64,000 nucleotides of DNA from Stenotrophomonas sp. SAU14A_NAIMI4_8 (GTDB lineage Bacteria; Pseudomonadota; Gammaproteobacteria; Xanthomonadales; Xanthomonadaceae). The stretch's first letter is position 1, and the number at the start of each line of letters is the position of its first letter. The notes beneath the pieces are model-generated. The model was not told where the DNA came from and ran no database searches. It saw only the letters and a list, made by a program, of their open reading frames with translations. The stretch spans positions 3,120,189 to 3,184,188 of the forward strand of contig NZ_CP025999.1 of assembly GCF_003086695.1 (NCBI RefSeq), given 5' to 3'. Positions 3,405 through 63,498 of the stretch are shown piece after piece. The position numbers and the translations under genes are program-made.

Positions 3405-3674
3405 CTGTCGTTCCGACAGACCGCGGGAAACTGTCAGAGGCGGGGCGGTGTGGGCTTGCAGGACCGCAGGCGCCATGGGCCCGAGGCATGCCTCGGGCGG
3501 GTTGGGCAGGACGCCCAACCCCGGTCTTGCCGTGCGCGCAGGACAGCGCGCACGAGCAAGGCGCCTACGAGCCCCCATGGACGGGTTTACGGCGTGTCCT
3601 GCAAGCCCACACCGCCCCGCCATTCCACGGAATGCCGCCCTTGCTTCGGCTTCGGCAGGTGCAGGGCGCAGCCC
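3405..3674 (+). repeat. Long-stem composite element A
   Basis: This non-coding 270 bp starts with a GACAG...CTGTC box (3415-3436), then a 25-base arm at 3439-3463 that is perfectly complementary to the arm at 3597-3621. The 133-base loop contains further hairpins: CCCGAGGC/GCCTCGGG, GTTGGGC/GCCCAAC and CGTGCGCG/CGCGCACG. It also carries the box ATGGACGGGTTTACGGCGTG just before the right arm. After the arm comes CATTCCACGGAATG, a short 6-bp repeat (CTTCGG type) and the start of a GCAGGTGCAGGGC hairpin. No open frame here looks coding. Confidence 0.75.
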
Positions 3675-3704
3675 AGCTCTGACCCCATCCACGCGATGCC
3701 CGGT

Positions 3705-3815
3705 GGGGTCAGAGCCCGTTGCGCAGCAACGGGCTCCGACCCGGTGTCGACCAAGGTCGACACCTACCCTTCGGCTTCCGCCTCTGCGGGTGCAGGGCGC
3801 AGCCCTGCAAAGCCC
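3705..3815. repeat. GGGGTC palindrome plus GTGTCGACC palindrome and partial composite end
   Basis: A GGGGTC-type hairpin (3705-3742, CCCGTTGC/GCAACGGG stem) is followed directly by the perfect 20-base palindrome GTGTCGACCAAGGTCGACAC (3744-3763). A hexamer-like CTTCGG tract and the GCAGGGC/GCCCTGC hairpin (around 3793-3811), normally the outer end of the composite elements, come next. The long-stem core is absent, so this looks like a truncated or recombined copy. Together with element A it fills the 592-base gap between the VOC and DUF2147 genes. Confidence 0.7.
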
Positions 3816-3897
3816 TCCCTCTTCCCCATACCCACCCGAATGGGTATACAGTCGCCCTGTACCGGCATCGTGCCGGAATGAACCCTGGGAGGGGACC

Positions 3898-4347
3898 ATG
3901 CGCAAGACCTTCAAGACCCTGCTGCTGGCACTGCCGCTGTGCCTGGCCGCGCTCTCGGCGCAGGCCGCCGACAGTGCCGCCGGCCGCTGGAAGACCATCG
4001 ACGACAAGACCGGCAAGGTGAAGTCGATCGTCGAGATCACCCAGGCCGCCAACGGCACGCTGTCTGGCAAGGTGGTCGACATCCTGCATTCGGACAAGGG
4101 CCCGAACCCGGTCTGCGATGGCTGCGAAGGCGCCAACAAGAACAAGCCGGTGAAGGGCATGACCATCCTGTGGAACCTGTCGCAGGACAAGGGCAGCCAC
4201 AGCAAGTGGTCCGGCGGCACCATCCTGGACCCGGCCAACGGCAAGACCTACAAGTCCAAGATCGAACTGCAGCCCGGCGGCGGCAAGCTGGACGTGTCCG
4301 GCTGCATCGCATTCATCTGCCGCGCGCAGACCTGGGTGCGCGAGTAA
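3898..4347 (+). CDS. DUF2147 family exported protein
   Basis: A 149-residue protein with a clear signal peptide (LLLALPLCLAALSAQA, cleavage expected near residue 24) and a DUF2147 domain: AAGRWKTIDDKTGKVKSIVE near the start of the mature protein and a C-terminal GCIAFICRAQTWVR. DUF2147 proteins are small lipocalin-like beta-barrels of unknown function in the periplasm. ATG 3898 is preceded by GGGAGGGG at a proper distance; upstream in-frame codons run through the repeat region and are not coding. It appears monocistronic, between the repeat block and metG. Confidence 0.88.
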   Translation: MRKTFKTLLLALPLCLAALSAQAADSAAGRWKTIDDKTGKVKSIVEITQAANGTLSGKVVDILHSDKGPNPVCDGCEGANKNKPVKGMTILWNLSQDKGSHSKWSGGTILDPANGKTYKSKIELQPGGGKLDVSGCIAFICRAQTWVRE

Positions 4348-4449
4348 CCCGCCCCACCCCGCGCAACACTCCGTGACCCGGCCCCGGCCGGGTCACGACG
4401 TTGCGGGCGTGCGATAATCTGCGGTTCCCCTCGGCTGCACCCCGCGACC

Positions 4450-6531
4450 ATGACCCGTACCGCGCTCGTCACCACCGCCCTGCCCTACGCCAACGGCCCG
4501 CTGCACCTGGGCCATCTGGTCGGCTACATCCAGGCTGACATCTGGGTGCGCGCGCGGCGAATGAGCGGCGGCAAGGCCTGGTTCGTCTGCGCCGACGACA
4601 CCCATGGCACGCCGATCATGCTGGCCGCCGAGAAGGCCGGGGTCACCCCGGAAACCTTCATCGCCAACATCCAGGCCAGCCACGAACGTGACTTTGCCGC
4701 CTTCGGCGTGGCCTTCGACCACTACGATTCGACCAACTCGGCGGCCAACAAGGCGCTGACCGAACAGTTCTACCTGAAGCTGGAAGCGGCCGGCCACATC
4801 AGCCGTCGCTCGGTGGCGCAGTTCTACGACCCGGCCAAGGGCATGTTCCTGCCCGACCGCTACGTGAAGGGCATCTGCCCCAACTGCGGCAGCGCCGACC
4901 AGTACGGCGACAACTGCGAAGTGTGCGGCGCCACCTACGCGCCCACCGACCTGAAGGAACCGCGTTCGGTCATTTCCGGGGCCACCCCGGAGATGCGCGA
5001 TTCGGAACACTTCTTCTTCGAGGTCGGCCACTTCGATGCGTTCCTGCGCGAATGGCTGGCCGGCGACGTCGCCCTGCCGGGCGTGAAGGCCAAGCTGGGT
5101 GAGTGGCTGAACGCCGAAGGCGGCCTGCGCGCGTGGGACATCTCGCGCGATGCGCCGTACTTCGGTTTCCAGATTCCCGGCCAGCCGGGCAAATACTTCT
5201 ACGTCTGGCTGGATGCGCCGATCGGCTACCTGTCCAGCTTCCAGACCCTGTGCGGCAAGCTGGGCGAAGACTTCGACGCGCACCTGCGCGCCGGCACCAG
5301 CACCGAACTGCACCACTTCATCGGCAAGGACATCGTCAACTTCCACGGCCTGTTCTGGCCGGCCGTGCTGCATGGCACCGGCCACCGCGCGCCCACCCGC
5401 CTGCACGTGAACGGTTACCTGACCGTGGACGGCGCCAAGATGAGCAAGTCGCGCGGCACCTTCGTGATGGCGCGCACCTTCCTGGACGCCGGCCTGGAAC
5501 CGGAAGCGCTGCGCTACTACTACGCGGCCAAGACCAGCGGCGGCGTGGACGACCTGGACCTGAACCTGGGCGACTTCATCGCCCGCGTCAACGCCGATCT
5601 GGTTGGCAAGTTCGTCAACCTGGCCAGCCGCTGCGCCGGCTTCATCAGCAAGCGCTTCGACGGCCTGCTGGCCACCCAGCTGCCCGACGCGGCGCAGTAC
5701 CAGCGTTTCGTCGATGGCCTGGCACCGATCCGCGAAGCCTACGAGCGCAACGATCCGGCCGCGGCCATCCGCTTGACCATGGCCCTGGCCGACGAAGCCA
5801 ACCGCTACATCGACGATGTGAAGCCCTGGGTGATCGCCAAGCAGGAAGGCGCCGATGCGCAGCTGCAGGCGGTCTGCAGCCAGGGCCTGAACCTGTTCCG
5901 CGTGCTGGTGACTGCGCTGAAGCCGGTGCTGCCGACCACCGCCGCCCAGGCCGAAGCGTTCCTGGCCGCACCGGTCAACGACTGGACCGCGCTGGCACAG
6001 CCGCTGCTGGGCCACCGCATTGCCGAGTACACCCCGCTGTTCACCCGTATCGACCCGAAGAAGATTGACGCCATGATCGACGCCTCCAAGGACACCCTGC
6101 AGCCGGCCGCCGCTGCCGCCCCCGCCGCCAAGCCCGAGGCCGCCAAGCCGGCCGCCCCGGCCCCGGCCAAGGACGAAGCCAACAGCGCCGACGCGCCGGC
6201 CTACATCGGCATCGACGATTTCGCCAAGCTCGACCTGCGCATCGGCAAGGTGCTGGTGTGCGAATTCGTGGAAGGCTCGGACAAGCTGCTGCGCTTCGAG
6301 CTGGACGCCGGCGACCTGGGCAAGCGCCAGATCTTCTCCGGCATCCGCGCCAGCTACGGCGAACCGGAAGCGCTGGTCGGCCGCAGCGTGGTGTTCATTG
6401 CCAACCTGGCCCCGCGCAAGATGCGCTTCGGCCTGAGCGAAGGCATGATCCTGTCGGCCGGTTTCGACGGCGGCGCGCTGGCACTGCTGGACGCCGACAG
6501 CGGCGCGCAGCCCGGCATGCCGGTCCGCTGA
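4450..6531 (+). CDS. metG: Methionyl-tRNA synthetase
   Basis: A 693-residue class I aminoacyl-tRNA synthetase that charges tRNA-Met in the cytoplasm. The HIGH-type motif appears as HLGH near residues 18-21. A four-cysteine zinc knuckle (CPNCG...CEVCG) begins at residue 143, and KMSKS is at residues 330-334. After the anticodon-binding helical region there is an Ala/Pro/Lys-rich linker at about 553-580. A C-terminal EMAPII/OB-fold tRNA-binding domain (about 585-693) follows, containing DLRIGKVL. This is the long dimerising form found in most gamma-proteobacteria. The ATG at 4450 gives the canonical N-terminus. Confidence 0.98.
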   Translation: MTRTALVTTALPYANGPLHLGHLVGYIQADIWVRARRMSGGKAWFVCADDTHGTPIMLAAEKAGVTPETFIANIQASHERDFAAFGVAFDHYDSTNSAANKALTEQFYLKLEAAGHISRRSVAQFYDPAKGMFLPDRYVKGICPNCGSADQYGDNCEVCGATYAPTDLKEPRSVISGATPEMRDSEHFFFEVGHFDAFLREWLAGDVALPGVKAKLGEWLNAEGGLRAWDISRDAPYFGFQIPGQPGKYFYVWLDAPIGYLSSFQTLCGKLGEDFDAHLRAGTSTELHHFIGKDIVNFHGLFWPAVLHGTGHRAPTRLHVNGYLTVDGAKMSKSRGTFVMARTFLDAGLEPEALRYYYAAKTSGGVDDLDLNLGDFIARVNADLVGKFVNLASRCAGFISKRFDGLLATQLPDAAQYQRFVDGLAPIREAYERNDPAAAIRLTMALADEANRYIDDVKPWVIAKQEGADAQLQAVCSQGLNLFRVLVTALKPVLPTTAAQAEAFLAAPVNDWTALAQPLLGHRIAEYTPLFTRIDPKKIDAMIDASKDTLQPAAAAAPAAKPEAAKPAAPAPAKDEANSADAPAYIGIDDFAKLDLRIGKVLVCEFVEGSDKLLRFELDAGDLGKRQIFSGIRASYGEPEALVGRSVVFIANLAPRKMRFGLSEGMILSAGFDGGALALLDADSGAQPGMPVR

Positions 6532-6591
6532 GGCACCCCGGGCGCGGCCCGCGCCGCGCCCGATCCGCACACCGCCACGGAAGGCACCGCC

Positions 6592-7197
6592 ATGGGAGAG
6601 AGCAGGATGGAGCTGGCGCTGTTCGATTTCGACCACACCATCACCACCTGCGATACCTATGGCCGCTTCGTGCGCCGCGTGGCCACGCCCGAACAGCTGG
6701 CGCGTGCGTGGTGGAAGGTGGGCCCATGGTTGCTGGCCTACCGCCTGCGCATCATTTCCGCCGAACGCATCCGCGCGCGGGTGACCCGCCTGACCTTCAG
6801 CGAACGCCACGCCGATGACATCGCCACGCTGGCCGCCGGCTTCGCCCGCGAGGTGCTGCCCGAGGTGATGCGGCCGGAAATGCTGGAACAGATCCGCTGG
6901 CACAAGGAACAGCAGCACACCGTGGTGGTGGTGTCCGGTTCGCTGGATCTGTACCTGCGGCCGTGGTGCGAACAGTGGGGCCTGCAGTTGATCTGCAACC
7001 GGCTGGAAAGCCAGGACGGCCGTTTGACCGGGCGCTACGCCGACGGCGACTGTGGCCCGCGCAAGGTCGACCACATCCGCCGCCGCTTCGACCTGTCACG
7101 CTATGTGCGCATCCACGCCTACGGCGACAGCTACGAAGACCGCCCCATGCTGGCCCTCGCCCACGAGCGCTGGTACCGCGGCAAGCCCCTGAAATAA
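6592..7197 (+). CDS. HAD-IB family phosphatase (SerB-like)
   Basis: A 201-residue HAD hydrolase. Motif I is [11 protein letters not shown] with the nucleophile Asp12 and Asp14. Motif II is [12 protein letters not shown], and motif III/IV is the C-terminal [11 protein letters not shown]. The subfamily (HAD-IB, TIGR01490-like) includes SerB and phosphatidylglycerophosphate or glycerol phosphatases, so the substrate is open. Starts at 6592 (ATGGGAGAG) and 6607 (ATGGAGCTG) are both possible; the second has GAGAGCAGG upstream. The gene lies 60 bases downstream of metG and just before rnfB and may be co-transcribed. Confidence 0.85.
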
Positions 7198-7220
7198 CCA
7201 ACGCGCAGCCTTCGCCACGC

Positions 7221-7634
7221 ATGAGCCTGATCCCGCCCTTGACCGAACGCCTGGACCGCCTGTTGCCGCAGACCCAATGTGGCCAATGCGGCTTTGATGG
7301 CTGCCGCCCGTACGCGCAGGCCATGGCCCGTGGCGACGCCGGCGTGGACCGCTGCCCGCCTGGCGGCGATGCCGGGGCGCGCGCACTGGCACAGGTGCTG
7401 GGCGTAGCTGCCGTGCCGTTCGACCGCACGCGCGGCGCGCACAAGCCACCGCAGGTGGCGGTGATCGTGGAAGCGGACTGCATCGGCTGCACCAAATGCA
7501 TCCAGGCCTGCCCGGTGGATGCGATCGTCGGCGGCGCCAAGTACATGCACACCGTCATTGCCGACCTGTGCACCGGCTGCGAGCTGTGCATTCCGCCGTG
7601 CCCGGTGGACTGCATCGATCTGCAGCTTTTGTAA
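7221..7634 (+). CDS. rnfB: RnfB-like electron transport ferredoxin (no membrane anchor)
   Basis: A 137-residue iron-sulfur protein. An N-terminal Fe-S motif has Cys20, Cys23, Cys28 and Cys45, followed by two ferredoxin CxxCxxCxxxCP motifs at residues 87-97 and 117-127. This matches RnfB of the Rnf/Rsx complex, except that the N-terminal membrane helix is missing. No rnfA, C, D, G or E gene is nearby, so it probably serves as a soluble electron carrier; a stand-alone RnfB is, from memory, usual in Xanthomonadaceae. ATG 7221 is the only start giving the complete N-terminal motif. It follows the HAD gene by 23 bases. Confidence 0.85.
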
Positions 7635-7673
7635 GGGGTCAGATCCCTTTTCGTAGAAAAGGGCTCTGACCCC
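7635..7673. repeat. GGGGTC-type palindrome after rnfB
   Basis: A hairpin of the GGGGTCAGATCC...GCTCTGACCCC family with a CCCTTTTC/GAAAAGGG inner stem, starting at the rnfB stop. Probably acts as transcript 3' end or terminator-like structure. Confidence 0.85.
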
Positions 7674-7904
7674 ATTCCGCGAAGCTAGTCGCAATCGACC
7701 CACACCGCCGCGCCCCACGTCCGCGCAAGCACGACACTTGTCGCAGATTGCCCGCTCGGTCGAGGCGCTTGCGGCGCAGCGGCATGGCAACCATCAACCC
7801 GATGCAACACTGCCGCAAGCGTCCTGCTGCGAAGTGGAATGCAACGATTCTGATGGGCATTCGGCCGCAGCACGGCTATAGATGGCGTGCCACTGATAAC
7901 GAGT

Positions 7905-8090
7905 GGCCGGGTCTCGAAAACCCGCGACGTAAGACGTTGTTCACGCTTGCCAGCCGGCGTCACATTGCGTGGCGCCGGCTGGCAATCCGTCTGCCGGCTA
8001 TGGCGGGCGGAGCGTGGGGGTCTTCGCGCCCACCGGTTTCGTCTTGCGTCCCGGTTTTCGAGCCACGTCTCCGTCCGCCACCCTCACGTG
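7905..8090 (+). promoter_or_regulatory. Structured leader, candidate cis-acting RNA
   Basis: Bases 7910-7935 (GGTCTCGAAAAC...GTAAGAC) pair over a distance with 8041-8064 (GTCTTGCGTC...TTTTCGAGCC) in a stem of about 22 pairs. Between them, 7947-7959 and 7973-7985 form a perfect 13-bp stem (TTGCCAGCCGGCG) whose loop can extend with CAC/GTG. A second G-rich hairpin occupies about 7990-8035. A CCACGTGAGGGTGG-like inverted repeat lies just downstream (8078-8096). The block ends about 30 bases before the small CDS at 8124. The rest of the 7674-7904 gap shows no gene. Frames crossing it, one of 288 codons, look non-coding. Confidence 0.55.
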
Positions 8091-8123
8091 GCGGCTACCG
8101 AATGCCTTGCACGGAGCACTGCC

Positions 8124-8483: not shown

Positions 8484-8488
8484 TTGAA

Positions 8489-8585: not shown

Positions 8586-8594
8586 TGAACAGCG

Positions 8595-16329: not shown

Positions 16330-16469
16330 CAGCAAGTACCTCAAAATGAATCAACAGCCGCCATTGTAACCGGCACGCCTGTGCTCCGATTTTTGTCGCG
16401 CGCGCGGCGCTTTGATTGATCTCGCTGGGGCGGGGGGGTGGGCTCTGCTTTTTGCTGCCGCGGCGCAGG

Positions 16470-16690
16470 GAACTGTCACGGCGGCGTGGGGAGGGGCGGA
16501 CGGGACCGTAGGCGCCAAGGGCCCGAGGCATGCCTCGGGCGGGTTGGGCAGGACGCCCAACCCCGGTCTTGCCGTGTGCGCAGGACAGCGCACGCGTGCA
16601 AGGCGCCTACGAGCTACATGGACGTATTTACCGCGTGTCCCGGCCGCCCCTCCCCGCGCCGCCCGAGCGGAGCAGGCAGGCGCTGAAACC
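16470..16690 (+). repeat. Long-stem composite element B
   Basis: A 20-base arm at 16480-16499 pairs with 16644-16663 with a single G:T wobble. The loop repeats that of element A almost base for base (CCCGAGGCATGCCTCGGG, GTTGGGC...GCCCAAC, GCGCAGGACAGCGC) and carries ACATGGACGTATTTACCGCG before the right arm. The arm sequence is quite different from A. The flanking CTGTC half-box is present on the left, but the ATTCC box on the right is not recognisable. It fills most of the 440-base gap between yjdM and the Hsp70 gene; 16330-16469 shows only a G-rich stretch. Confidence 0.7.
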
Positions 16691-21228: not shown

Positions 21229-21822
21229 ATGATGTTGTCACTGAAGGATCACCTGCCGGCCTGGACCCACCCGTGGCTGCACGACATCGGCGTCGGCCTG
21301 CAGATCCTGGCCACGCTGCTGGCCGCCTGGTTGCTGCGATTGCTGGCGCGGCGTCTGATCCGGCGCTTTTCCGAGCACTACACCCTGCCGCAGGAAATGG
21401 CGATGGGTGCGCGGCGGATTAGCAGCTTCGTGGTGTATTTCAGCGCCCTGCTGTACATCCTCAGCCTGCTGGGTGCATCGCCTTCGGTGCTGTGGACCGC
21501 GTTCACCGGCTTTGCGGCGGTGGGTGCCGTGGCCTTCTTCGCGGCCTGGAGCGTGCTGTCCAACATCTTCTGCACGTTGCTGATCTTCACCACCCGCCCG
21601 TTCCGCCTGCACGATTACATCGAAGTGCTGGAGAACGGCGAGAAGCCCGGCCTGAAGGGTCGGGTGATCGACGTGAACCTGATCTACACCACGCTGCAGG
21701 AAACCGGCGATGGCCACCAGGGCACGGTGCTGCAGCTGCCCAACAACCTGTTCTTCCAGCGCACGGTGCGCCGCTGGCGCGACCCGTCGCAGGCCCCCGG
21801 CGGCATCCAGGGCGACGGCTGA
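21229..21822 (+). CDS. Small mechanosensitive ion channel (MscS family)
   Basis: A 197-residue protein with about three membrane segments (ILATLLAAWLLRLLA, SFVVYFSALLYILSLLG and AAVGAVAFFAAWSVLSNIF) followed by the MscS beta domain FRLHDYIEV. The pore-lining helix with GAVAFFAAWSVLSNI is the family hallmark. It lacks the long C-terminal cage of E. coli MscS. It probably gates on membrane tension and protects from osmotic downshock. Two adjacent ATG codons (21229, 21232) begin it. Confidence 0.85.
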   Translation: MMLSLKDHLPAWTHPWLHDIGVGLQILATLLAAWLLRLLARRLIRRFSEHYTLPQEMAMGARRISSFVVYFSALLYILSLLGASPSVLWTAFTGFAAVGAVAFFAAWSVLSNIFCTLLIFTTRPFRLHDYIEVLENGEKPGLKGRVIDVNLIYTTLQETGDGHQGTVLQLPNNLFFQRTVRRWRDPSQAPGGIQGDG

Positions 21823-21829: not shown

Positions 21830-22062
21830 TTCTCTGCAGGGCTTGCAGCCCTGCACCTGCTACGAGCAACGGCAACGGCAACGGCAACGGCAAAAGCTTG
21901 CATTCCGTGGGATGGCGGGGTGGGTCCGGTTGCGGGGGGCGCTGCAAGTACGTCCATGTAAGCTTGGCCGCGGCATCCATGCCGCGGACACCCCCGCAAC
22001 CGGACCCACCCCGCCTTCGACAGTTTCCCGCGATCTTTTGGATCGGCGTTCTGCTCTGGTGG
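21830..22062 (-). repeat. Long-stem composite element C
   Basis: Reverse orientation. From left: GCAGGGCTTGCAGCCCTGC hairpin, four tandem CAACGG hexamers (21867-21890), CATTCCGTGG box, 25-base arm at 21914-21938, loop with GCAAGTACGTCCATGTA and a GCGGCATCCATGCCGC hairpin, and a perfectly complementary arm at 21991-22015. CGACAG...CGCGATC follows. Arm sequence differs from A and B (GGTCCGGTTGCG core). Confidence 0.75.
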
Positions 22063-22968
22063 GTGTCGACCTTGGTCGACACGCGTGAATTCATTCGGTA
22101 TCTGACAGATGTGTCGACCAAGGTCGACACCCACCAACAGCCACGCATGCCGCGATGGCCAGTAGAGCCACGCCATGCGTGGATGCGTTTCGAATTCAAT
22201 CCGAAATTCTCGATTCCCACAGGGATCAATCCACGCATGGCGTGGATCTACTGTGTCGACCAAGGTCGACACCTACCAACAGCCGCGCATGCCGCGATGG
22301 CCAGTAGATACACGCCATGCGTGGATGCGTTTCGAATTCCATTCGAAATTTTCGATTCCCACAGAGATCAATCCACGCATGGCGTGGATCTACTGTGTCG
22401 ACCAAGGTCGACACCTACCAACCGCCGCGCATGTGCCGCGATGGCTAGTAGAGCCACGCCATGCGTGGATGCATTTCGAACTCAATCCGAAATTTTCGAT
22501 TCCCACAGGGATCAATCCACGCATGGCGTGGATCTACTGTGTCGATCAAGGTCGACACCTACCAACAGCCGCGCATGCCGCGATGGCAAGTAGAGCCACG
22601 CCATGCGTGGATGCGTTTCGAATTCCATTCGAAATTTTCGATTCCCACAGAGATCAATCCACGCATGGCGTGGATCTACTGTGTCGACCAAGGTCGACAC
22701 CTACCAACCGCCGCGCATGTGCCGCGATGGCTAGTAGAGCCACGCCATGCGTGGATGCATTTCGAATTCAATCCGAAATTTTCGATTCCCACAGGGATCA
22801 ATCCACGCATGGCGTGGATCTACTGTGTCGACCAAGGTCGACACCTACCAACCGCCGCGCATGTGCCGCGATGGCAAGTAGAGCCACGCCATGCGTGGAT
22901 GCGTTTCGAATTCAATCCGAAATTTTCGATTCCCACAGAGATCCATCCACGCATGGCGTGGATCCCCC
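22063..22968 (+). repeat. Tandem SMAG array, period 142/144 bp
   Basis: Each unit consists of the palindrome GTGTCGACCAAGGTCGACAC, a GCCGCGCATG spacer, a forward GTAGAGCCACGCCATGCG hairpin, a TTCGAATTC-rich centre and an inverted ATCCACGCATGGCGTGGAT hairpin ending CTAC. The palindrome starts at 22111, 22253, 22395, 22539, 22681 and 22825, giving spacings 142, 142, 144, 142 and 144; the two extra bases come from a TG insertion after GCGCATG. An inverted copy stands at 22063-22082. Paired GTAG-headed stem-loops match the Stenotrophomonas SMAG repeat family. Long frames through it are periodic repeat translations, not genes. Confidence 0.9.
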
Positions 22969-23178
22969 GCCGATCGCGGGAATCTGTCAGAGGTGGGGCG
23001 GTGTCGGATTGCGGGGTGTCAGCCGCATGGATGCGGCTGCCAAGCCTACACGGACGTACTTGCGGCGTCCCCGCAATCCGACACCGCCCCGCCATCCCAC
23101 GGAATGCCGCTTTTGACGTTGACGTTGACGTTGACGTTGCATTGAGCAGGTGCAGGGCGCAGCCCTGCAAAAACCCCT
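22969..23178 (+). repeat. Long-stem composite element D
   Basis: Follows the SMAG array directly. It has a GATCGCGGGAATCTGTC flank and a 22-base arm at 22995-23016 perfectly complementary to 23069-23090. The loop has an AGCCGCATGGATGCGGCT hairpin and ACGGACGTACTTGCGGCGTC. CATCCCACGGAATG, four tandem TTGACG hexamers (23113-23136) and the GCAGGGC/GCCCTGC hairpin follow. With element C it brackets the array, in opposite orientation. Confidence 0.75.
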
Positions 23179-23179
23179 T

Positions 23180-23446
23180 TCACCGAAGCTGGCTGTCCTT
23201 GCTGCCGCGGCGGTTGTAACCGGCGTGTGCCTGTTCTTCATCGTCCAGCGCCTGCTGGCACGCCACGCACAGGCGAACACCGGGCACGGCCTGGCGCCGC
23301 GCCAGCGGAATCGGCGCGTCGCATTCTTCACAGTGTTCCAGACCCGGCCCCTGGCGCAGCTGGCGCCGCGCACGGGCAATGGCATCGTCAACGGTGGCGT
23401 CGATCTGGTCCTGGACCGCGCCGTCGCCCGCCCAACCGGTGGCCAT
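23180..23446 (-). CDS. DksA/TraR family C4-type zinc finger protein
   Basis: An 88-residue YbiI-like protein. The C4 zinc finger is CEECDAPI...LCVACQ, preceded by a helical DATVDDAIARARRQL coiled region and followed by a short tail. Members resemble the zinc-finger end of DksA; a role in transcription is possible but unproven for short forms. ATG 23446 has GGAGGTGA six bases upstream and is preferred over the adjacent GTG. The stop lies at the edge of element D. Confidence 0.88.
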   Translation of the reverse strand: MATGWAGDGAVQDQIDATVDDAIARARRQLRQGPGLEHCEECDAPIPLARRQAVPGVRLCVACQQALDDEEQAHAGYNRRGSKDSQLR

Positions 23447-23557
23447 CACTCACCTCCGCAACTGTCAGGTATTCCCCTGATATGGGGACCTTACCCGTAA
23501 CTGCAATCGGCAGCACCGGGCCCTGCCCGGCGTGCTGGCGACCGGTTCAGCCGCGCC

Positions 23558-50671: not shown

Positions 50672-51394
50672 ATGCAGATGACCCCGCGGACCAGCCGGCC
50701 CCGCTTCCTGCTTGTCGAGGACGACATTATCAGCCGCGGTTTTTTCAAAGCGGCGTTGGAAACGTTACCAGCCGATGTGGACACTGCTGACTCACTTGCC
50801 AGCGCGCTTGCCCGTGGCGAGCCGGGCACGCATGACCTGTGGCTGATCGACGTGAACCTGCCCGACGGCAATGGCGCCCAGCTGTTGCAGGCGCTGCGCC
50901 AGTCGCATCCGGACACCCCGGCATTGGCCCATACCGCCGACGGCGATGCCTCCATTCATGCCAGCCTGCGTGAAGCAGGCTTCAGCGACACCCTGGTGAA
51001 GCCGCTGGGCCGTGATCAACTGCTGAAGGCAGTGCGCCGGGCGCTGGTGAACAGCCCGGGCGCTGCGCCGCTGCCGCCGGCCGCGGTTGAGCTGGCCGTG
51101 GAAGACTGGGATGAGACGGCGGCCCTGGCGGCACTGAACGGCCAACGCAACCACCTGATTGCCCTGCGTGAGCTGTTCCTGGCCGAGCTGCCGGGGGTCC
51201 GCGATGCGGTCGAACAGGCGGTGGACCAGCACGACGAGCGCCAGCTGCGCAGCCAGCTGCATCGGCTACAGGCCAGTTGTGGCTTCGTGGGGGCGGCCCG
51301 GCTGGGCCGTGCCGTGCGCCAGCTGCACCACGCGCCCGACTCCGGGCAGGCCCAGGCGGGCTTCCGCGCCGCCGTGGCTTCCCTGCTGCACTGA
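50672..51394 (+). CDS. Receiver-Hpt signalling protein
   Basis: A 240-residue protein with an N-terminal CheY-like receiver (LLVEDDIISRGFF, phospho-acceptor Asp in LWLIDVNLPDGNG near residue 70, Lys in LVKPLG) and a C-terminal histidine phosphotransfer domain. In the latter, LHRLQASCGFVGA contains the phospho-histidine. It lacks a DNA-binding output, so it probably shuttles phosphate between a hybrid sensor and a regulator. No histidine kinase is adjacent. Start ATG 50672 follows GGAGGCAGCCCT. Its stop is followed by the repeat array. Confidence 0.88.
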   Translation: MQMTPRTSRPRFLLVEDDIISRGFFKAALETLPADVDTADSLASALARGEPGTHDLWLIDVNLPDGNGAQLLQALRQSHPDTPALAHTADGDASIHASLREAGFSDTLVKPLGRDQLLKAVRRALVNSPGAAPLPPAAVELAVEDWDETAALAALNGQRNHLIALRELFLAELPGVRDAVEQAVDQHDERQLRSQLHRLQASCGFVGAARLGRAVRQLHHAPDSGQAQAGFRAAVASLLH

Positions 51395-51404: not shown

Positions 51405-51617
51405 GGCGGCAGGGCTTGCAGCCCTGCACCTGCCGAATCAACGTCAACGGCCGAAGCAACAGCGGGCTATCCGTGGGATGGCGGGGCGGTGTGGGTGGCC
51501 AGGACACGCCGCAAGTACGTCCCTGTAGGCTCGTAGGCGCCATCCATGGCGCCTGCGATCCTGCCCACCCACACCACCCCGCCTTCGACAGTTTTCCGCG
51601 ATCTGTCGGAACGGCAC
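51405..51617 (-). repeat. Long-stem composite element E
   Basis: Reverse orientation. GCAGGGCTTGCAGCCCTGC hairpin, hexamer-like AACGTCAACGG, CCGTGGGATGG box, then a 25-base arm at 51480-51504 matching 51559-51583 with two mismatches. The loop carries CGCAAGTACGTCCCTGTA and a GGCGCCATCCATGGCGCC hairpin. The right flank is TTCGACAG...GCGATCTGTCGG. Confidence 0.72.
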
Positions 51618-51656: not shown

Positions 51657-52234
51657 AGAGACAATTCGGTATCTGACAGAGCGTGTCGACCAAGGTCGAC
51701 ACCTACCAGAGCAAGATGCGGTTCCGACAGATCGCGCGGGACTGTCACCGGTTCCCAGCGGCCAGTAGATCCACGCCATGCGTGGATGAATCTCAATCGG
51801 AATCAGAAGTTTCGAAGTGCGTTCGAAAAGCATCCACGCATGGCGTGGATCTACCGTGTCGACCAAGGTCGACACCTACAGAGCAAGCGGTGCCGACAGA
51901 TCGCAGAGAACGGTCACGGGGTCCCGGCGGCCAGTAGATCCACGCCATGCGTGGATGAATCTCAATCGGAATCAAAAATTTCGAAGTGCGTTCGAAGAGC
52001 ATCCACGCATGGCGTGGATCTACCGTGTCGACCAAGGTCGACACCTACCAGGCCAATATGCGGTTCCGACAGATCGCGGAAACTGTCAAGGGGTCCCGGC
52101 GGCCAGTAGATCCACGCCATGCGTGGATGAATCTCAATCGGAATCAGAAATTTCGAAGCGCGTTCGAAAAGCATCCACGCATGGCGTGGATCTACTGTGT
52201 CGACCAAGGTCGACACCTACCAGGCCAATATGCC
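51657..52234 (+). repeat. Second SMAG tandem array, period about 170 bp
   Basis: The palindrome GTGTCGACCAAGGTCGACAC begins at 51683, 51856, 52025 and 52197 (spacings 173, 169, 172). Each unit adds CCGACAGATCGCG and a partial CTGTC, then a forward GTAGATCCACGCCATGCG hairpin, an ATCTCAATCGGAATCA centre with TTTCGAA motif, and an inverted CATCCACGCATGGCGTGGAT hairpin. The GACAG box is the same as that flanking the composite elements. Together with elements E and F it fills the 1,042-base gap between the receiver-Hpt gene and recO. Confidence 0.88.
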
Positions 52235-52428
52235 GTTCCGACAGATCGCGGAAAACTGTCGAAGGCGGGGTAGGTCCGGTTGAGGGGGCGTGAGCCGCAT
52301 GGATGCGGCGACCGAGCTTACAGGGACGTACTTGCAGCGTCCCCCTCAACCGGACCCACCCCGCCATTCCACGGATAGCCAGCTTTTGACGTTGACGGTA
52401 GCAGGTGCAGGGCTGCAAGCCCTGCCGA
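52235..52428 (+). repeat. Long-stem composite element F
   Basis: Flank CCGACAGATCGCGG...CTGTCG; 25-base arm at 52264-52288 pairs with 52341-52365 with one mismatch. The loop has a GCCGCATGGATGCGGC hairpin and GGGACGTACTTGCAGCGT. The right side has CATTCCACGGA, two TTGACG hexamers and GCAGGTGCAGGGCTGCAAGC. Its arm is close to that of element C (GGTCCGGTTG core). Confidence 0.75.
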
Positions 52429-52436: not shown

Positions 52437-53156
52437 TCAGCGGCGGGGGGACAGCTGCTCCAGCAGCTCCCAGGATTTCAGGCCGCGTGCGCCCAGGTGA
52501 TGGGCCAGCACCCGCCGCATCGGCAGCCGCAGGCTGGCCAGGTCGGCCGCATCGGGTTCTTCGTCGGCGCCCAGCGCCAGCAGCGCCGAACCGGTGGCCG
52601 CGGCACTGCGCTCGCCGTCACGCACGCTCAACAGCCGCTGCGGACCCTCCTGCGGGTCCAGCGCATAACGCGCCGCCGGATCAATCGGCTGGCCGTCGCT
52701 GGCCGTTTCCAGATCGAAGCCCAGGCCCAGTGCCGCCAGCAGCTCGCGCTCGAAACGGCGCAGGGTCCAGGCCAGGCCGGCGCCCACCGCCAGTCGCGCG
52801 CGCGCTTCGCCGTAGGCCAGATAGAGATCAGGCAGCGGGTCCTGGCGCGGGGCCAGGCGCAGGGTCAGTTCACTCAGGTAGAAACCGGCCAGCATGGCCT
52901 GCCCCACCAGCCGCGGCGCTGCATCCAGGGCCTCGGCACCGCGCAACTGCGCCAGCTCACCGCGCTGCTGCGCGCTGAAGCGGATCCATTGCAGGGGCTG
53001 CAGGGCGGCGCGCAGCACCTGCCCTTTCGCGGTGGAGACCCCGCGCGCCAGCACGCCGATACGGCCATGCTGCGCGCTCAGCACCTCCACCAGCAGGCTG
53101 GTCTCGCGGTAGGCCCGTGCGTGCAGCACGAACCCGGTGTCGTCCTCGATCAGCAT
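52437..53156 (-). CDS. recO: DNA repair protein RecO
   Basis: A 239-residue RecO: an N-terminal OB-fold ([22 protein letters not shown]) and a helical C-terminal domain with [21 protein letters not shown] and the Leu-rich end. It loads RecA with RecR onto single-stranded DNA. The gene is last in the lepA-lepB-DUF4845-rnc-era-recO block, with 18 bases after era. ATG 53156. Confidence 0.93.
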
Positions 53157-57820: not shown

Positions 57821-57982
57821 AGGTGGCGGCGGCGCGCGGCGTCGTCAGGGTAACGGTGGATTATCGCATGCCCGGGGCCAGCCCGCTTGGGCGCGCTCGC
57901 GGGGCGGCTGGAAATGGCCGAAGCCCCGCCAGAGCGGGGCTTCGGGGGAATGCCAGGGCCGCCAGGGGAGGCCGTGAAGGCC

Positions 57983-59515: not shown

Positions 59516-59594
59516 CGGACGGCAACCTCCGGATCGGATGGAAAACGGGAGAGGCGCCCCGCCGGCGGCGGGGCGTGGACCGGCGCGCTCCAGG

Positions 59595-60464
59595 TCAGTC
59601 GCGCGGGCGGGGCGGCGTCGGCAGATCGTCCTGCAGGCGCGGCTCGAAGGGATAGAACGCGGCGCCAGCGGACGCGGCCGGGAGGCTGGCGTTGAGGGCG
59701 CTGCCGCCGGCCGGGGCCAGGCTGGACTTCGGCCAGGGCCGTGCCTGCAGGCTGCCGACATCGCCGAAGGGCAGATGGCGCGTGTTGGCGGCGGGCACCG
59801 ACGGCGCCAGCGGCACCGCAGCCGTGGCAACGGCGCGCTGCGGCGCCTCGTCACGCTGGGCCACGCGCGCGGCCTGCTGGCTGCGGGTGGCACTGGCGCG
59901 GCGGGCATCCTGGCGGCGGCTGGCGGCCATGGCCACCGCCGGCACAGCGGCAACGGCCATCGCGGCGCTGTCCACCGACGCTTCGGTTACCGGCGCGGCA
60001 GCCGGCGCCAGTTCGGCCTGGCTGGCCACCACCTGCGGGGCCGGGGCTTCGCCAGGTGCGGGGGTCTGCAGCTTTTCGCCGCCCATGAACAGGGCCACGG
60101 CGGCCACCGAGGCCGCCAGTGCGGCACCGCCGCCCCAGGCACGCCAGCCCGTGCGACGCACCTGCCGGCGCGGTTCCGCCACCGGCGCGGGTTCGGCGGC
60201 AATCGCCGCGGCCACGCGTTCACTGAAACCGGCCGGGGCCAGCAGCGAGGCCTGGCCACGCATCACATCGCCCAGCAGCTGCCAGCGTTCCTGGCAGCCG
60301 GCCAGTTCCGGATCATGTTCCATGCGGCGCAGCAGGAAGCGCGCCTCGTCGGCGCCCAGCTCGCCATCGACCAGGGCCGACAGCTGTTCGCGATGGCGCT
60401 GGTCCAGGCGCTGCCCGGCCGGGGATTGATGGTTCTGCGATTCGTTCAACGGGTTACTGGTCAT
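59595..60464 (-). CDS. rseA: Anti-sigma-E factor RseA-like
   Basis: A 289-residue protein with an N-terminal RseA domain (QLSALVDGELGADEARFLL, residues 27-45), a single membrane segment AALAASVAAVALFMGG (about 115-130) and a long Ala/Pro-rich periplasmic part. It holds sigma-E inactive until proteolysed under envelope stress. The stop-to-start overlap with rpoE is ATGA (60461-60464). The extended Ala/Pro tail is longer than in E. coli RseA. Confidence 0.88.
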   Translation of the reverse strand: MTSNPLNESQNHQSPAGQRLDQRHREQLSALVDGELGADEARFLLRRMEHDPELAGCQERWQLLGDVMRGQASLLAPAGFSERVAAAIAAEPAPVAEPRRQVRRTGWRAWGGGAALAASVAAVALFMGGEKLQTPAPGEAPAPQVVASQAELAPAAAPVTEASVDSAAMAVAAVPAVAMAASRRQDARRASATRSQQAARVAQRDEAPQRAVATAAVPLAPSVPAANTRHLPFGDVGSLQARPWPKSSLAPAGGSALNASLPAASAGAAFYPFEPRLQDDLPTPPRPRD

Positions 60465-61081
60465 ACGCGGCTCTTCTCGCGGGTGGCGCTGCCGATGTCC
60501 AGCAGCGGCCGGAGTTCAGTGTCGATCGCCTCGCGCGCCCGGAAGATCCGCGAACGCACGGTGCCGATCGGGCACCCCATCTTCTGCGCGATTTCCTCGT
60601 AGCTCAGGCCTTCCACCTCGCGCAGGGTGATCGCCGACCGGAGTTCTTCCGGCAGCGCGTTGACGGCCTTCATCACCGTCTGTTCCAGTTCCTGGCGCAT
60701 CAACTCGCGTTCGGGCGTGTCGGTGTCGCGCAGACGGGTGCCGCTGTCGAACTGCTCGGCATCACCGATGTCGATGTCATCGGTGGGCGGGCGTCGATTG
60801 TGTGAAGCCAGGTAGTTTTTGGCAGTGTTCACGGCGATCCGATGCAACCAGGTTGAGAACTGGGCGTCGCCGCGGAAGCTTCCAATGGCGCGATAGGCGC
60901 GCATGAAAGTGTCCTGGGCCACGTCCTGACATTCGCTCCAGTCGGCGATGTAGCGACCGACAAGGGCCACCACGCGATGCTGGTACTTGCGCACCAGGAC
61001 ATCGAACGCGGCGCTCTCGCCGTGCTGCACGCGCCGGACCAGTTCCAGATCCAGCTCCTGTGGTGTTTCAACCTCGGCCAT
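60461..61081 (-). CDS. rpoE: Extracytoplasmic function sigma factor RpoE
   Basis: A 206-residue sigma factor. Region 2 is QHRVVALVGRYIADWSECQD with the linked DTFMRAYRAI; region 4 has LRSAITLREVEGLSYEEIAQ and CPIGTVRSRIFRAREA. Heads the rpoE-rseA-mucD envelope-stress operon. ATG 61081 is preferred to a GTG twelve bases upstream that overlaps the GGAG ribosome site. Confidence 0.95.
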   Translation of the reverse strand: MAEVETPQELDLELVRRVQHGESAAFDVLVRKYQHRVVALVGRYIADWSECQDVAQDTFMRAYRAIGSFRGDAQFSTWLHRIAVNTAKNYLASHNRRPPTDDIDIGDAEQFDSGTRLRDTDTPERELMRQELEQTVMKAVNALPEELRSAITLREVEGLSYEEIAQKMGCPIGTVRSRIFRAREAIDTELRPLLDIGSATREKSRV

Positions 61082-61121
61082 GAGGGGCCGCACTCCTGTC
61101 AGCCCAACCGACGTCGGGCAA

Positions 61122-61148
61122 TGAGACTGCCAATCCCGGGAAAAGTTC
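61122..61148 (-). promoter_or_regulatory. Sigma-E-type promoter upstream of rpoE
   Basis: On the minus strand GAACTT (61143-61148) is followed by 16 bases and TCTCA (61122-61126), close to the sigma-E consensus GAACTT-N16-TCTGA. It lies 41 bases before the rpoE start and would give autoregulation. Read by eye. Confidence 0.6.
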
Positions 61149-61315
61149 AGTCGCCGATCACCCGGCGCCGCACCAGCTTTTAACCACCGTTCCGCTAGCG
61201 TCCGGTTCCACGGCCATGGATCCGGGGTCGCCTACCCCTCCTATTGGGATTTGACGCGGGGGAAACAACCTCTGGATCATAGCCGCTTCTCCATACACAA
61301 CCGGATGGAACGTCC

Positions 61316-63379
61316 ATGCTCTCAGGCTTCGATGGGCTTCGCTTCAGCCACTGGCACCCCGAAATCCGTGAAGACGGCGTGGTGGTCCTTACCCTGGATC
61401 GTCAGGACACCAGCGTCAACGCGATGTCGCAGGACGTGCTGCTGGAACTGGGCGACCTGCTCGAACGCATCGCCCTGGACCCGCCCAAGGGCGTGGTGAT
61501 CCAGTCGGCGAAGAAGGCCGGCTTCATTGCCGGTGCCGACCTGAAGGAGTTCCAGGAGTTCGACCGCCGCGGCACCGTGAACGATGCCATCCGCCGCGGC
61601 CAGTCCACCTACCAGAAGTTGGCCGAGCTGCCCTGCCCCACCGTGGCGGCCATCCATGGCCACTGCCTGGGCGGCGGTACCGAACTGGCGCTGGCCTGCC
61701 GCTACCGTGTGGCCTCCAATGACAGCAGCACCCGCATCGGTCTGCCGGAAACCCAGCTGGGCATCTTCCCGGGCTGGGGCGGCAGCGCGCGACTGCCGCA
61801 CCTGGTGGGTGCGCCGGCGGCGATGGACCTGATGCTGACCGGGCGCACCCTGTCGGCCTCGGCAGCGCGTGGCATCGGCCTGGTCGACAAGGTGGTGGCA
61901 CCGGCCGTGGTGCTCGATACCGCCGTGGCGCTGGCCCTGTCCGGCACTACCCGCCCGTTCAAGCAGCGCGCGACCGCATGGGCGACCAATACCTGGTTGG
62001 CGCGCACGCTGCTGGCACCGCAGATGGTCAAGCAGGTGGCGCGCAAGGCGAAGAAGGACCAGTACCCGGCGCCGTACGCACTGATCAGCACCTGGCAGCG
62101 CAGCGGCGGCAAGCCGATCCAGGCACGCCTGGATGCCGAGCGCCGCGCGGTGGTGAAGCTGGCCAGCACGCCGACCGCGCGCAACCTGATCCGCATCTTC
62201 TTCCTGACCGAGCGCCTGAAGGGCCTGGGCAGCGGTGATTCCGGCATCCGCCACGTGCACGTGGTCGGCGCCGGCGTGATGGGCGGCGACATTGCTGCCT
62301 GGGCCGCCTACAAGGGCTTCGAGGTGACCCTGCAGGACCGCGAGCAGCGCTTCATCGACCCGGCCATGGAGCGCGCGCAGGCGCTGTTTGCCAAGAAGGT
62401 GCGCGACGAGAGCAAGCGCCCGGCGGTGGCCGCGCGACTGCGTGCCGACCTGGAGGGCAACGGCGTGGCCGAAGCCGATCTGGTGATCGAGGCCATCATC
62501 GAGAACCCCGAGGCCAAGCGTGCGCTGTACCAGACGCTGGAACCGAAGATGAAGCTGGACGCCCTACTGACGACCAACACCTCGTCGATTCCGTTGGTGG
62601 AACTGCGCGACCACATCCAGCGCCCGGCGCAGTTTGCCGGCCTGCACTACTTCAACCCGGTGGCGCAGATGCCGCTGGTGGAAATCATCCACCACGACGG
62701 CATGGCACCAGAAACCGAGCGCCGCCTGGCCGCGTTCTGCAAGGCGCTGGGCAAGTTCCCGGTGCCGGTGGCCGGCAGCCCGGGCTTCCTGGTCAACCGC
62801 GTGCTGTTCCCGTACATGCTGGAAGCGGCCACCGCCTATGCCGAAGGCATTCCGGGCCCGGTGATCGACAAGGCCGCGGTGAAGTTCGGCATGCCGATGG
62901 GGCCGATCGAGCTGATCGATACCGTGGGCCTGGACGTGGCTGCCGGCGTGGGCCGTGAACTGGCCCCGTTCCTGGGCCTGCAGATTCCGGCGGCGCTGCA
63001 GACGGTAGAACCGGACAAGCGCGGCAAGAAGGACGGCCAGGGCATCTACACCTGGGAAAACGGCAAGCCGAAGAAGCCGGACGTGGCCAGCAACTACCAG
63101 GCCCCGACCGATCTGGAAGACCGCCTGATCCTGCCGCTGTTGAACGAGGCGGTAGCCTGCCTGCACGAAGGCGTGGTGGCCGATGCGGACCTGCTGGATG
63201 CGGGTGTGATCTTCGGCACCGGTTTCGCCCCGTTCCGTGGCGGCCCGATCCAGCACATCCGCGCGGTGGGTGCCGATGCGATCGTCGAGCGGCTGAAGGC
63301 GCTGCAGCAGCGCCACGGCGACCGCTTCGCCCCGCGCCCGGGCTGGGACAACCCCGCCCTGCGCGAACCGGTGGTGTGA
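61316..63379 (+). CDS. Multifunctional fatty acid beta-oxidation protein (enoyl-CoA hydratase/3-hydroxyacyl-CoA dehydrogenase)
   Basis: A 687-residue FadB/FadJ-type enzyme. The N-terminal crotonase part has AGFIAGADLKEF and HGHCLGGGTELALACRYR (residues about 65-140). The dehydrogenase part begins near residue 318 with HVVGAGVMGGDIAAWAA, continues with TNTSSIPLVEL, and has the C-terminal helical domains. It hydrates enoyl-CoA and oxidises 3-hydroxyacyl-CoA with NAD. A TTGACG box at 61251 is a possible -35 element. Divergent from rpoE. Confidence 0.93.
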   Translation: MLSGFDGLRFSHWHPEIREDGVVVLTLDRQDTSVNAMSQDVLLELGDLLERIALDPPKGVVIQSAKKAGFIAGADLKEFQEFDRRGTVNDAIRRGQSTYQKLAELPCPTVAAIHGHCLGGGTELALACRYRVASNDSSTRIGLPETQLGIFPGWGGSARLPHLVGAPAAMDLMLTGRTLSASAARGIGLVDKVVAPAVVLDTAVALALSGTTRPFKQRATAWATNTWLARTLLAPQMVKQVARKAKKDQYPAPYALISTWQRSGGKPIQARLDAERRAVVKLASTPTARNLIRIFFLTERLKGLGSGDSGIRHVHVVGAGVMGGDIAAWAAYKGFEVTLQDREQRFIDPAMERAQALFAKKVRDESKRPAVAARLRADLEGNGVAEADLVIEAIIENPEAKRALYQTLEPKMKLDALLTTNTSSIPLVELRDHIQRPAQFAGLHYFNPVAQMPLVEIIHHDGMAPETERRLAAFCKALGKFPVPVAGSPGFLVNRVLFPYMLEAATAYAEGIPGPVIDKAAVKFGMPMGPIELIDTVGLDVAAGVGRELAPFLGLQIPAALQTVEPDKRGKKDGQGIYTWENGKPKKPDVASNYQAPTDLEDRLILPLLNEAVACLHEGVVADADLLDAGVIFGTGFAPFRGGPIQHIRAVGADAIVERLKALQQRHGDRFAPRPGWDNPALREPVV

Positions 63380-63389
63380 GTTGGTAGGC

Positions 63390-63498
63390 CGGGCCTGCGG
63401 CCCGGCACCCGCAGAGGCAATAGCAACAGCCGGCTCTGGCTTTTCTGTTTGCTGGGCGGGGCGGTGTGCGCTGGCAGGACACGCCGTAAACCCGTCCA
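63390..63498 (-). repeat. Long-stem composite element G, truncated by an insertion sequence
   Basis: Left part only: remnant microsatellite (GGCAATAGCAACAGCC), then an arm at 63455-63479 of the same family as A and E, then CACGCCGTAAACCCGTCCA, which is the reverse complement of the loop end of element A. At 63499 the sequence switches abruptly to an IS3-type end. The matching right arm would lie beyond the inserted element. Confidence 0.65.

What the first reader, a model, noticed from the sequence alone, without database searches (positions are those of the whole stretch)
3405..63498. Seven copies of a composite element whose long stem changes sequence but stays self-complementary
Elements A (3405-3674), B (16470-16690), C (21830-22062), D (22969-23178), E (51405-51617), F (52235-52428) and G (63390-63498, interrupted) share one architecture. 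In order: GACAG...CTGTC box, 20-25 bp arm, loop with a hairpin and a GGACGTA...GCGT-type box, complementary arm, ATTCCACGGA box, 6-bp microsatellite, GCAGGGC hairpin. The outer half of the arm (GGCGGGGYGG) is shared, while the inner half differs between copies; in A, C and D the two arms match exactly, in B with one wobble, in E and F with one or two mismatches. Such covariation argues for selection on, or copying through, a hairpin. Both orientations occur. I do not recall a name for it; it may be a non-autonomous mobile element or an expressed structured RNA.
Basis: partly seen in the sequence, partly recalled or inferred. Interest (0 to 1): 0.75.

Follow-up and report, generated by a model that had tools for sequence, protein, structure and literature searches.

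The report
Paired hairpin repeats behind bacterial genes
A Stenotrophomonas chromosome carries over a hundred copies of a folded element, mostly in back-to-back pairs and often just behind genes; both of its small loops have the shape that the global regulator CsrA is known to grip, so the copies may be binding sites for that protein.

Summary
The seven copies belong to a family of about 121 arms in this genome. The real unit is an inverted pair: 44 of 46 close neighbours are minus-then-plus, CTGTC box inside, GCAGGGC hairpin outside. Each arm is a three-way junction: a long stem P1 whose sequence varies but stays complementary, and two hairpins, P2 and P3, with ANGGAN hexaloops. Model hits occur in 45 of 274 gammaproteobacterial genomes; between genomes P1 is nearly unique per copy while loop letters 1, 3, 4 and 5 hardly vary. 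G-U exceeds A-C mismatches on one strand, so one single strand is what matters. It is not nameless in kind: it is a divergent branch of Rfam TwoAYGGAY (RF01731), and Ysr224 (RF02770) models its opposite strand. The loops match the published high-affinity CsrA/RsmE motif. Best explanation: an RNA module with two CsrA sites, dispersed often at gene 3' ends. CsrA binding and transcription are inferred, not shown; energy folding supports P2 well and P3 weakly. Apparently new: the paired, two-type, 3'-end organisation, the copy number, and the union of two Rfam families. A single-stranded-DNA mobile element is the main rival.

The parts
3431..3630 (+). Arm A (solitary), type 1b stem, with a nested insert of about 80 nt in P2
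3577..3582 (+). P3 hexaloop ATGGAC of A
3792..3808 (+). outer-type GCAGGGC hairpin beyond A
16473..16666 (+). Arm B (solitary, degenerate, nested insert; not present at this site in the five relatives where the site was mapped)
21836..21854 (.). outer hairpin of C, starting 14 nt beyond the stop codon of the + gene ending at 21822
21905..22023 (-). Arm C, type 2 stem; left half of composite C/D
21952..21957 (-). P3 hexaloop ATGGAC of C
22024..22983 (.). spacer of composite C/D: mostly SMAG/REP palindromes, period 142-144
22984..23102 (+). Arm D, type 1a stem; right half of composite C/D
23027..23032 (+). P2 hexaloop ATGGAT of D
23050..23055 (+). P3 hexaloop ACGGAC of D
23152..23168 (.). outer hairpin of D, 12 nt from the end of the called convergent gene (23180-23449, -)
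51409..51427 (.). outer hairpin of E, starting 15 nt beyond the stop codon of the + gene ending at 51394
51471..51591 (-). Arm E, type 1b stem; left half of composite E/F
51519..51524 (-). P3 hexaloop AGGGAC of E
52256..52374 (+). Arm F, type 2 stem; right half of composite E/F
52322..52327 (+). P3 hexaloop AGGGAC of F
52407..52425 (.). outer hairpin of F, 12 nt from the convergent gene's stop codon at 52437
63388..63406 (.). outer hairpin of G in its compensated form GCCGGGC/GCCCGGC, starting 9 nt beyond the stop codon ending at 63379
63407..63498 (-). left part of arm G, cut in its P3 loop by an IS; the rest of the arm and a + arm lie outside the window

Best explanation
Each arm is a dispersed, divergent copy of the TwoAYGGAY structured-RNA superfamily. 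When its plus strand is transcribed it folds into a three-way junction: a long closing stem (P1) whose sequence is free as long as it pairs, and two hairpins that present ANGGAN hexaloops, the high-affinity binding shape for the dimeric regulator CsrA/RsmA. Two arms of different stem type face outward in one composite, often right behind stop codons. Whichever strand is transcribed (read-through mRNA, or both mRNAs of a convergent gene pair), the transcript carries one sense arm. The different stems keep the two arms from pairing with each other. Arms are sometimes exchanged between sites, most simply by gene conversion. Inferred effect: CsrA binds this 3' UTR or read-through RNA and is titrated by it, or protects it. 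Shown here: family, structure, covariation, loop conservation, strand asymmetry, pairing rule, bias to gene 3' ends, change of arm type at some sites. Inferred: transcription, CsrA binding, titration, gene conversion, the reason for unlike arms.
For: Covariation: with an independent RNAalifold structure. Sites picked only by an exact P3 sequence: 101 of 111 have a P1 stem scoring 8 or more (34 of 111 with swapped partners), 92 score 15 or more against 2 swapped, and 105 of 111 segments beside P2 are distinct. Loops: P2 is ANGGAN in 115 of 115 six-nt loops here (121 elements) and 130 of 133 elsewhere (160 elements); P3 in 107 of 114 here. Position 2 of own P3 loops is T51 G32 C16 A15. PMC4005645 (passages): an ANGGAX hexaloop directly on a stem is the high-affinity CsrA/RsmE motif, N and X variable. 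PMC4347634 (passages): CsrA SELEX consensus RUACARGGAUGU; AC-ANGGAN-GT occurs in 67 of 112 P3 here and 42 of 60 elsewhere, the full ACARGGATGT in 0 of 112 and 15 of 60. Stem mismatches G-U to A-C: 64:29 and 139:37, 131:29. Minus-plus order in 44 of 46 close neighbours here, 26 of 32 elsewhere; no pair of 41 examined (of 44) shares P1, 5.6 expected, p 0.0015. Convergent sites 23 of 75 against 10 of 99 other gaps, p 0.0008. One CsrA gene is present.
Against: No transcription or binding data. In this genome the P2 loop is almost fixed (ATGGAT in 114 of 115), so the free choice of N is seen in P3 here and in P2 only elsewhere. CsrA genes: 41 of 45 R1-positive against 194 of 229 negative genomes (no test run), hardly a difference; G196 (98% complete) is positive and not among the CsrA-positive genomes. 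ViennaRNA closes the P3 hexaloop in only 23 of 109 own arms and 56 of 129 others, GGA unpaired at mean probability 0.68 and 0.66. In whole composites GGA is free in P2 for 42 of 74 strands and in P3 for 21 of 74. Junction and internal-loop letters are conserved too, which CsrA alone does not explain. Ysr224, listed as an expressed Yersinia RNA, is the strand without ANGGA loops. Mutational strand bias could add to the G-U excess, and 15 U-G cells at one P1 pair here are not independent.
Confidence: 0.55

Rival explanations
1. A non-autonomous single-stranded-DNA mobile element (IS200/IS605- or REPIN-like): the arms are subterminal hairpins read as ssDNA by a HuH transposase, and the loops are its recognition letters.
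For: High copy number (121 here; 0 to 134 model matches per genome in the genus), defined outer hairpins, inverted pairs, REPs inside spacers, B present here and not at the same site in the five relatives mapped there. Strand asymmetry fits ssDNA as well as RNA.
Against: Five Y1-transposase genes were found; by eye none carries this arm in the 350 nt printed on each side, three show GTAG-type REPs and one a GGGTCAGA repeat. C/D and E/F are occupied at the same sites in four relatives each. No BLAST match of arm D in the plasmid (72,556) or phage (50,697) records. It does not predict CsrA-type loops.
Confidence: 0.22
2. A 3'-end element with no role for CsrA: a bidirectional transcription barrier or mRNA 3' stabiliser, like REPs/BIMEs. 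The long stems matter and the loops bind something else.
For: Outer hairpins 9-15 nt from called gene ends for the five such ends in the window; convergent enrichment; very stable predicted folds on both strands of the four arms folded.
Against: Stability alone needs neither conserved loop letters, nor a conserved junction, nor one preferred strand.
Confidence: 0.18
3. Chance palindromes or repeat decay without function.
For: Some copies are broken: internal deletions, decayed E/F site in G280.
Against: 0 of 500 shuffles; class-wide stems with unlike sequence, 92 of 111 against 2 swapped.
Confidence: 0.02

Closest known systems
TwoAYGGAY RNA (Rfam RF01731, clan CL00106)
   Same: Two hairpins with AYGGAY-type loops in a stem-closed junction. 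All 11 sub-threshold hits in this genome lie on these elements, same strand (one search read; one on a partial element). Four of 20 fetched RF01731 loci also score 61-68 bits with the model built here and 11 more ring weakly. Its members also sit as minus-plus pairs: 6 of 6 loci with two hits.
   Different: Own copies peak at 40.3 bits, gathering score 43. Loops are broader, ANGGAN. Only four of the 22 genomes with RF01731 hits are among the 45 with R1 hits. Adjacent G/A mismatches at the base of P2 are seen in a subset only (13 of 48 rows).
Ysr224 (Rfam RF02770)
   Same: The opposite strand of the same arm: 12 of 12 own-genome hits overlap an element on the other strand, and 25 of 27 genomes with hits also have R1 hits (one search read). 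PMC9029176 (passages) lists it among the top 20 most prevalent sRNAs in bacteria.
   Different: Best 51.3 bits in 274 genomes, gathering score 70: none over the cut-off. No named Yersinia genome was searched.
CsrB/CsrC, RsmX/Y/Z sponge RNAs
   Same: GGA presented in hairpin loops (PMC4005645, passages, for RsmZ).
   Different: Those are dedicated sRNA genes with many sites (recalled); here two sites per arm, more than a hundred copies between other genes, no promoter shown.
SMAG/GTAG REPs and BIMEs (PMC3733652, PMC2613905)
   Same: Intergenic palindromes of S. maltophilia, often paired, near gene 3' ends.
   Different: REPs are 20-40 bp with a GTAG or CGTC tag; this arm is about 120 nt, a three-way junction without the tag, and carries REPs in its spacer.
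YPAL and ERIC of Yersinia
   Same: Palindromic intergenic repeats of 100-170 bp (PMC2267715 passages).
   Different: No sequence comparison was made; only a lead.

Membership tests
TwoAYGGAY RF01731 | Score over the curated gathering threshold (43 bits) for the copies here | tested here: not met
   best 40.3 bits, 11 hits with E up to 10, 0 over cut-off
TwoAYGGAY RF01731 | Bridging sequences accepted by both the Rfam model and the model of these copies | tested here: met
   L370, L371, L372, L374: 44.6-55.0 bits with RF01731, 61.2-67.8 with R1. Of the other 16 loci fetched, 11 ring weakly with R1 (E 0.00016-0.033) and 5 not at all
TwoAYGGAY RF01731 | Two hairpins with AYGGAY loops in one stem-closed junction | tested here: met
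   but the second loop letter is not limited to Y
TwoAYGGAY RF01731 | Tandem G-A mismatches in one stem (PMC4333381 passage) | tested here: inconclusive
   seen at the P2 base in a subset, 13 of 48 rows at pair 39-56
Ysr224 RF02770 | Gathering score 70 | tested here: not met
   0 of 274 genomes over cut-off; hits overlap elements on the opposite strand
CsrA-binding RNA | ANGGAX hexaloop directly on a stem | tested here: met
   sequence and covariation; energy folding supports P2, P3 only weakly
CsrA-binding RNA | Measured binding and expression | not testable with these tools
   no assay or reads
REP/SMAG (GTAG) | 20-40 bp palindrome with GTAG or CGTC tag | tested here: not met
   arm of about 120 nt, no such tag at its ends
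IS200/IS605-type non-autonomous element / TIRtron | Same repeat flanks a Y1 transposase gene in the genome | tested here: not met
   5 of 5 PF01797 matches over cut-off inspected by eye, 350 nt each side
IS200/IS605-type non-autonomous element / TIRtron | Precise empty and filled sites between close strains | tested here: inconclusive
   short sites exist in relatives too divergent to read junctions

The most novel reading that the evidence does not exclude
A class-wide, dispersed family of CsrA decoys: more than 200 intact ANGGAN sites in this one genome, packaged as direction-independent inverted pairs often right behind stop codons, so that transcriptional read-through sets how much CsrA is titrated. 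TwoAYGGAY and Ysr224 would be the two strands of this one element.
Probability: 0.35. Interest if true: 0.85.

Novelty: new variant of a known kind. Interest (0 to 1): 0.66.

Why it matters
In the papers I saw, TwoAYGGAY (2010) still has no shown function, and Ysr224 is among the most often annotated bacterial sRNAs. If both are one repeated element with two CsrA sites per arm, the function becomes directly testable, many 'sRNA' annotations need re-reading, and CsrA would have a large dispersed binding pool that, as far as I know, current Csr models leave out. The unlike yet complementary stems are also a natural record of compensatory change or hairpin-templated copying.

Tried and rejected
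Rfam at gathering threshold gave only C4 RNA in the window. A link to the genome's Y1-transposase genes was tested and not seen. CsrA-gene co-occurrence is not informative. Plasmid and phage searches with arm D gave no match. Minimum-energy folding of whole composites gives only partial support. Chance palindromes were rejected.

Literature searches: TwoAYGGAY 7 papers, 5 listed; Ysr224/RF01731/RF02770/AYGGAY 10, 8 listed; CsrA with repeat or sponge terms 239, 15 listed; CsrA with Stenotrophomonas terms 299, 15 listed; S. maltophilia REPs 36, 20 listed; repeat/RAYT terms 27, 20 listed; Yersinia palindromes 90, 20 listed; S. maltophilia small RNA 4; CsrA SELEX consensus 17, 8 listed; ANGGA/RsmE 30, 10 listed. 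In what I saw I met no statement that TwoAYGGAY and Ysr224 are one element or that they form inverted pairs; the library lacks most subscription papers. Of eleven papers opened I saw passages only, plus one whole section of PMC3733652; the rest are search listings.
Full report
The observation. The seven copies are real. The conserved box occurs 7 times in the window against 0.36 expected, and 0 of 100 shuffles reach that. A BLAST search with D gave 82 matches in the 4.48-Mb genome, both strands of some arms counted. A covariance model (R1) built from 48 arms with a structure I wrote by hand gave 131 matches at E up to 1. I fetched 75 regions; four weak sites (466584, 625226, 1571280, 2003504; 26.7-34.3 bits) were not fetched. 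Of 240 model matches in the 75 regions the best 150 were aligned; after removing overlaps of the two strands 121 elements remain. G was not among the model's matches.

Anatomy. An arm reads: CTGTC box, P1 5' strand (25-26 nt), P2 hairpin, P3 hairpin, P1 3' strand, CACGGA box, hexamer microsatellite, outer hairpin. P1 comes in a few frequent types here (1a, 1b, 2) plus many rarer ones: 70 distinct 26-nt P1 arms among elements of at least 110 nt. Pair counting on the 44 distinct rows gives 97.8% paired cells and 23 of 39 pairs with changes on both sides; none of 500 shuffles is as high for cells paired, both-side changes or covariation score. The count of further pair types did not exceed shuffles (453 of 500 at least as high), because a few types carry most of the variation. 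RNAalifold on its own gives the same fold and extends P2 by two pairs, one of them covarying. The outer hairpin also changes in compensated form: GCAGGGC/GCCCTGC 64 times, GCCGGGC/GCCCGGC 8 times, of 75 hairpins found at 121 elements.

The unit is a pair. Among neighbours closer than 1.2 kb 44 of 46 are minus-then-plus; one is minus-minus, and one plus-minus, the latter between two copies of what looks like a tandem duplication. 88 of 121 elements are in such a pair. In other genomes 26 of 32 neighbours are minus-then-plus, five minus-minus, one plus-plus, none plus-minus. Six of six loci with two RF01731 hits show the same order. The two arms of a pair are not of the same stem type: of 41 pairs examined (3 of 44 had a short arm) none reaches 85% P1 identity, where shuffling expects 5.6 (p 0.0015). 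P2 stems are identical in 4 of 40 pairs against 7.5 expected, not significant (p 0.09). Either long perfect inverted repeats are lost from DNA, or like arms would pair with each other in RNA and hide the loops.

Where it sits. With a codon-usage gene caller of my own, not checked against annotation, 75 clusters lie between convergent genes 23 times, ++ 22, -- 17, divergent 13. Of 99 other gaps of at least 50 nt in the flanks 10 are convergent (Fisher p 0.0008); the drop in divergent sites is not significant (13 of 75 against 27 of 99, p 0.15). In the window as a whole 6 of 38 such gaps are convergent, the C/D and E/F sites included. Arm ends facing a gene's stop codon lie a median 72.5 nt away (n 66), those facing a start 138.5 nt (n 52); roughly 60 nt of this is tail and outer hairpin. 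Part of the difference may only reflect that promoters need room. In the window the five outer hairpins that face called gene ends lie 9-15 nt from them.

Class-wide family. R1 finds matches in 45 of 274 Gammaproteobacteria genomes at E up to 0.01; only 13 candidates per genome were scored, so this is a lower bound. Among 25 genomes in the relatives search 14 have matches, from 1 to 134 each; three of the 15 other genomes of the genus have none. G249 and G239 have 146 and 135 matches, G293 and G089 41 and 40, while G269, rich in RF01731 hits, has one. Two MAG labels there (Klebsiella, Rhodobacteraceae) look like binning errors to me.

Selection on one strand. To avoid any bias of the structure model I took 111 sites defined only by the P3 sequence. 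101 have a P1 stem scoring 8 or more (median 30 pairs) against 34 of 111 with swapped partners; 92 score at least 15 against 2; the 20-nt segment beside P2 is distinct in 105 of 111. Among mismatches G-U exceeds A-C 131 to 29 on the ANGGA strand, 139 to 37 in other genomes and 64 to 29 here. G-U on one strand is A-C on the other, so a symmetric DNA cruciform is not what is maintained. RNA and single-stranded DNA both remain possible, and a mutational strand bias is not excluded. The counts come from sequences chosen by a model that prefers G-U to A-C; those do not.

The loops. In six-nt P2 loops ANGGAN holds in 115 of 115 here and 130 of 133 elsewhere; in P3, 107 of 114 here and 158 of 159 elsewhere, but 100 of the 160 other elements come from loci selected by a pattern that fixes this loop; 80 of the 120 loci were searched with the model. 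Here P2 is ATGGAT in 114 of 115, so free variation of letter 2 is seen in P3 (T51 G32 C16 A15) and, in other genomes, in P2 (G67 T58 A7 C1). Six of 121 own P2 loops and 27 of 160 others are not six nt long in the alignment and are not in these counts, nor are seven own P3 loops. PMC4005645 (passages) gives ANGGAX directly on a stem as the high-affinity CsrA/RsmE motif, with N and X looped out. PMC4347634 (passages) gives the SELEX consensus RUACARGGAUGU. The P3 hairpin reads AC-ANGGAN-GT in 67 of 112 own and 42 of 60 model-selected other elements; the full ACARGGATGT in 0 and 15. The nested insert in A and B adds two hairpins with GGA in the loop (folds). PMC4333381 (passages) had already proposed CsrA binding for TwoAYGGAY from two motif matches.

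Against. On arms alone ViennaRNA supports the P2 hexaloop (97 of 109 own arms, 117 of 129 others) but closes P3 in only 23 and 56, although GGA there is unpaired with mean probability 0.68 and 0.66. In whole composites both GGA triplets are free in 21 of 74 strands, P2 alone in 42; 7 pairs were skipped. CsrA genes occur in 41 of 45 positive and 194 of 229 negative genomes (counted by hand, no test run): weak. The four without are G008, G069 and G100 (67-88% complete) and G196 (98%), the last inferred because it is absent from the list of positives and the list of negatives was cut.

Names. RF01731: 11 sub-threshold hits here, all on these elements, same strand, best 40.3 against 43 (one lies on a partial element seen). 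In the class it hits 22 of 274 genomes, 13 over cut-off, only four of the 22 shared with R1. Of 20 fetched loci four are accepted by both models, 11 ring weakly with R1 and 5 do not. RF02770: 27 of 274 genomes, none over cut-off, 25 of them R1-positive, own 12 of 12 on the opposite strand of an element (compared by eye). I conclude that both describe one superfamily, and that the copies here are a divergent branch rather than members by Rfam's own threshold.

Evolution. The gene left of E/F was found in 15 of 15 relatives of the genus. Both arms are present behind it in G277, G282, G274 and G281, and one arm cut by a contig end in G278; the site is decayed in G280. None was found in the nine others: seven by the model on the fetched loci, G276 and G284 on longer stretches. 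C/D is occupied in the four relatives examined with the stretches at hand (G277, G282, G274, G280) and short in G284. Arm types partly change: E is 1b here, 1a in G277 and G282 and another type in G281; C is type 2 here and 1b in G277; but D stays 1a in all four and F stays type 2 in all four, with P2 changed in two. Both strands of P1 change together, so an arm seems to be replaced whole, most simply by gene conversion between copies. B is not present in the five relatives where its site was mapped. G carries an IS with an integrase core domain inside its P3 loop.

Verdict. A real, widespread, structurally selected repeat; family known in part, organisation and scale new as far as I could search. 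The CsrA mechanism is the best fit and directly testable; it remains unproven.

Noticed in passing
window 7996-8085 +: C4 antisense RNA (RF01695), 55.8 bits.
   Followed up: no
genome about 3183687-3185327 (from window 63499 on): IS with rve integrase domain inserted in the P3 loop of element G, with a short repeat of the target (about 3 bp) on both sides.
   Followed up: partly
window 22137-22980 and 51740-52252: SMAG palindrome arrays (period 142-144 and 169-172) fill the spacers of the composites, as if the composites grow by tandem duplication inside.
   Followed up: no
L014 754-1386 (genome about 3347900-3348550): Four tandem 190-nt units, each matching the 5' half of an arm without the 3' half.
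   Followed up: no
L046-L050: Five Y1-transposase genes; those of L047-L049 are flanked by their own GTAG REP type and L046 by the GGGTCAGA...TGACCCC repeat that is also in the window.
   Followed up: partly
window 3422-3572 and 16464-16614: Nested insert of about 80 nt in P2 of A and B, also seen in arms of G277 and G280, with two extra GGA-loop hairpins.
   Followed up: partly
tails of arms, e.g. window 23110-23145: Hexamer microsatellite (GTTGAC/GTTGCC and the like) of variable length between the CACGGA box and the outer hairpin.
   Followed up: no
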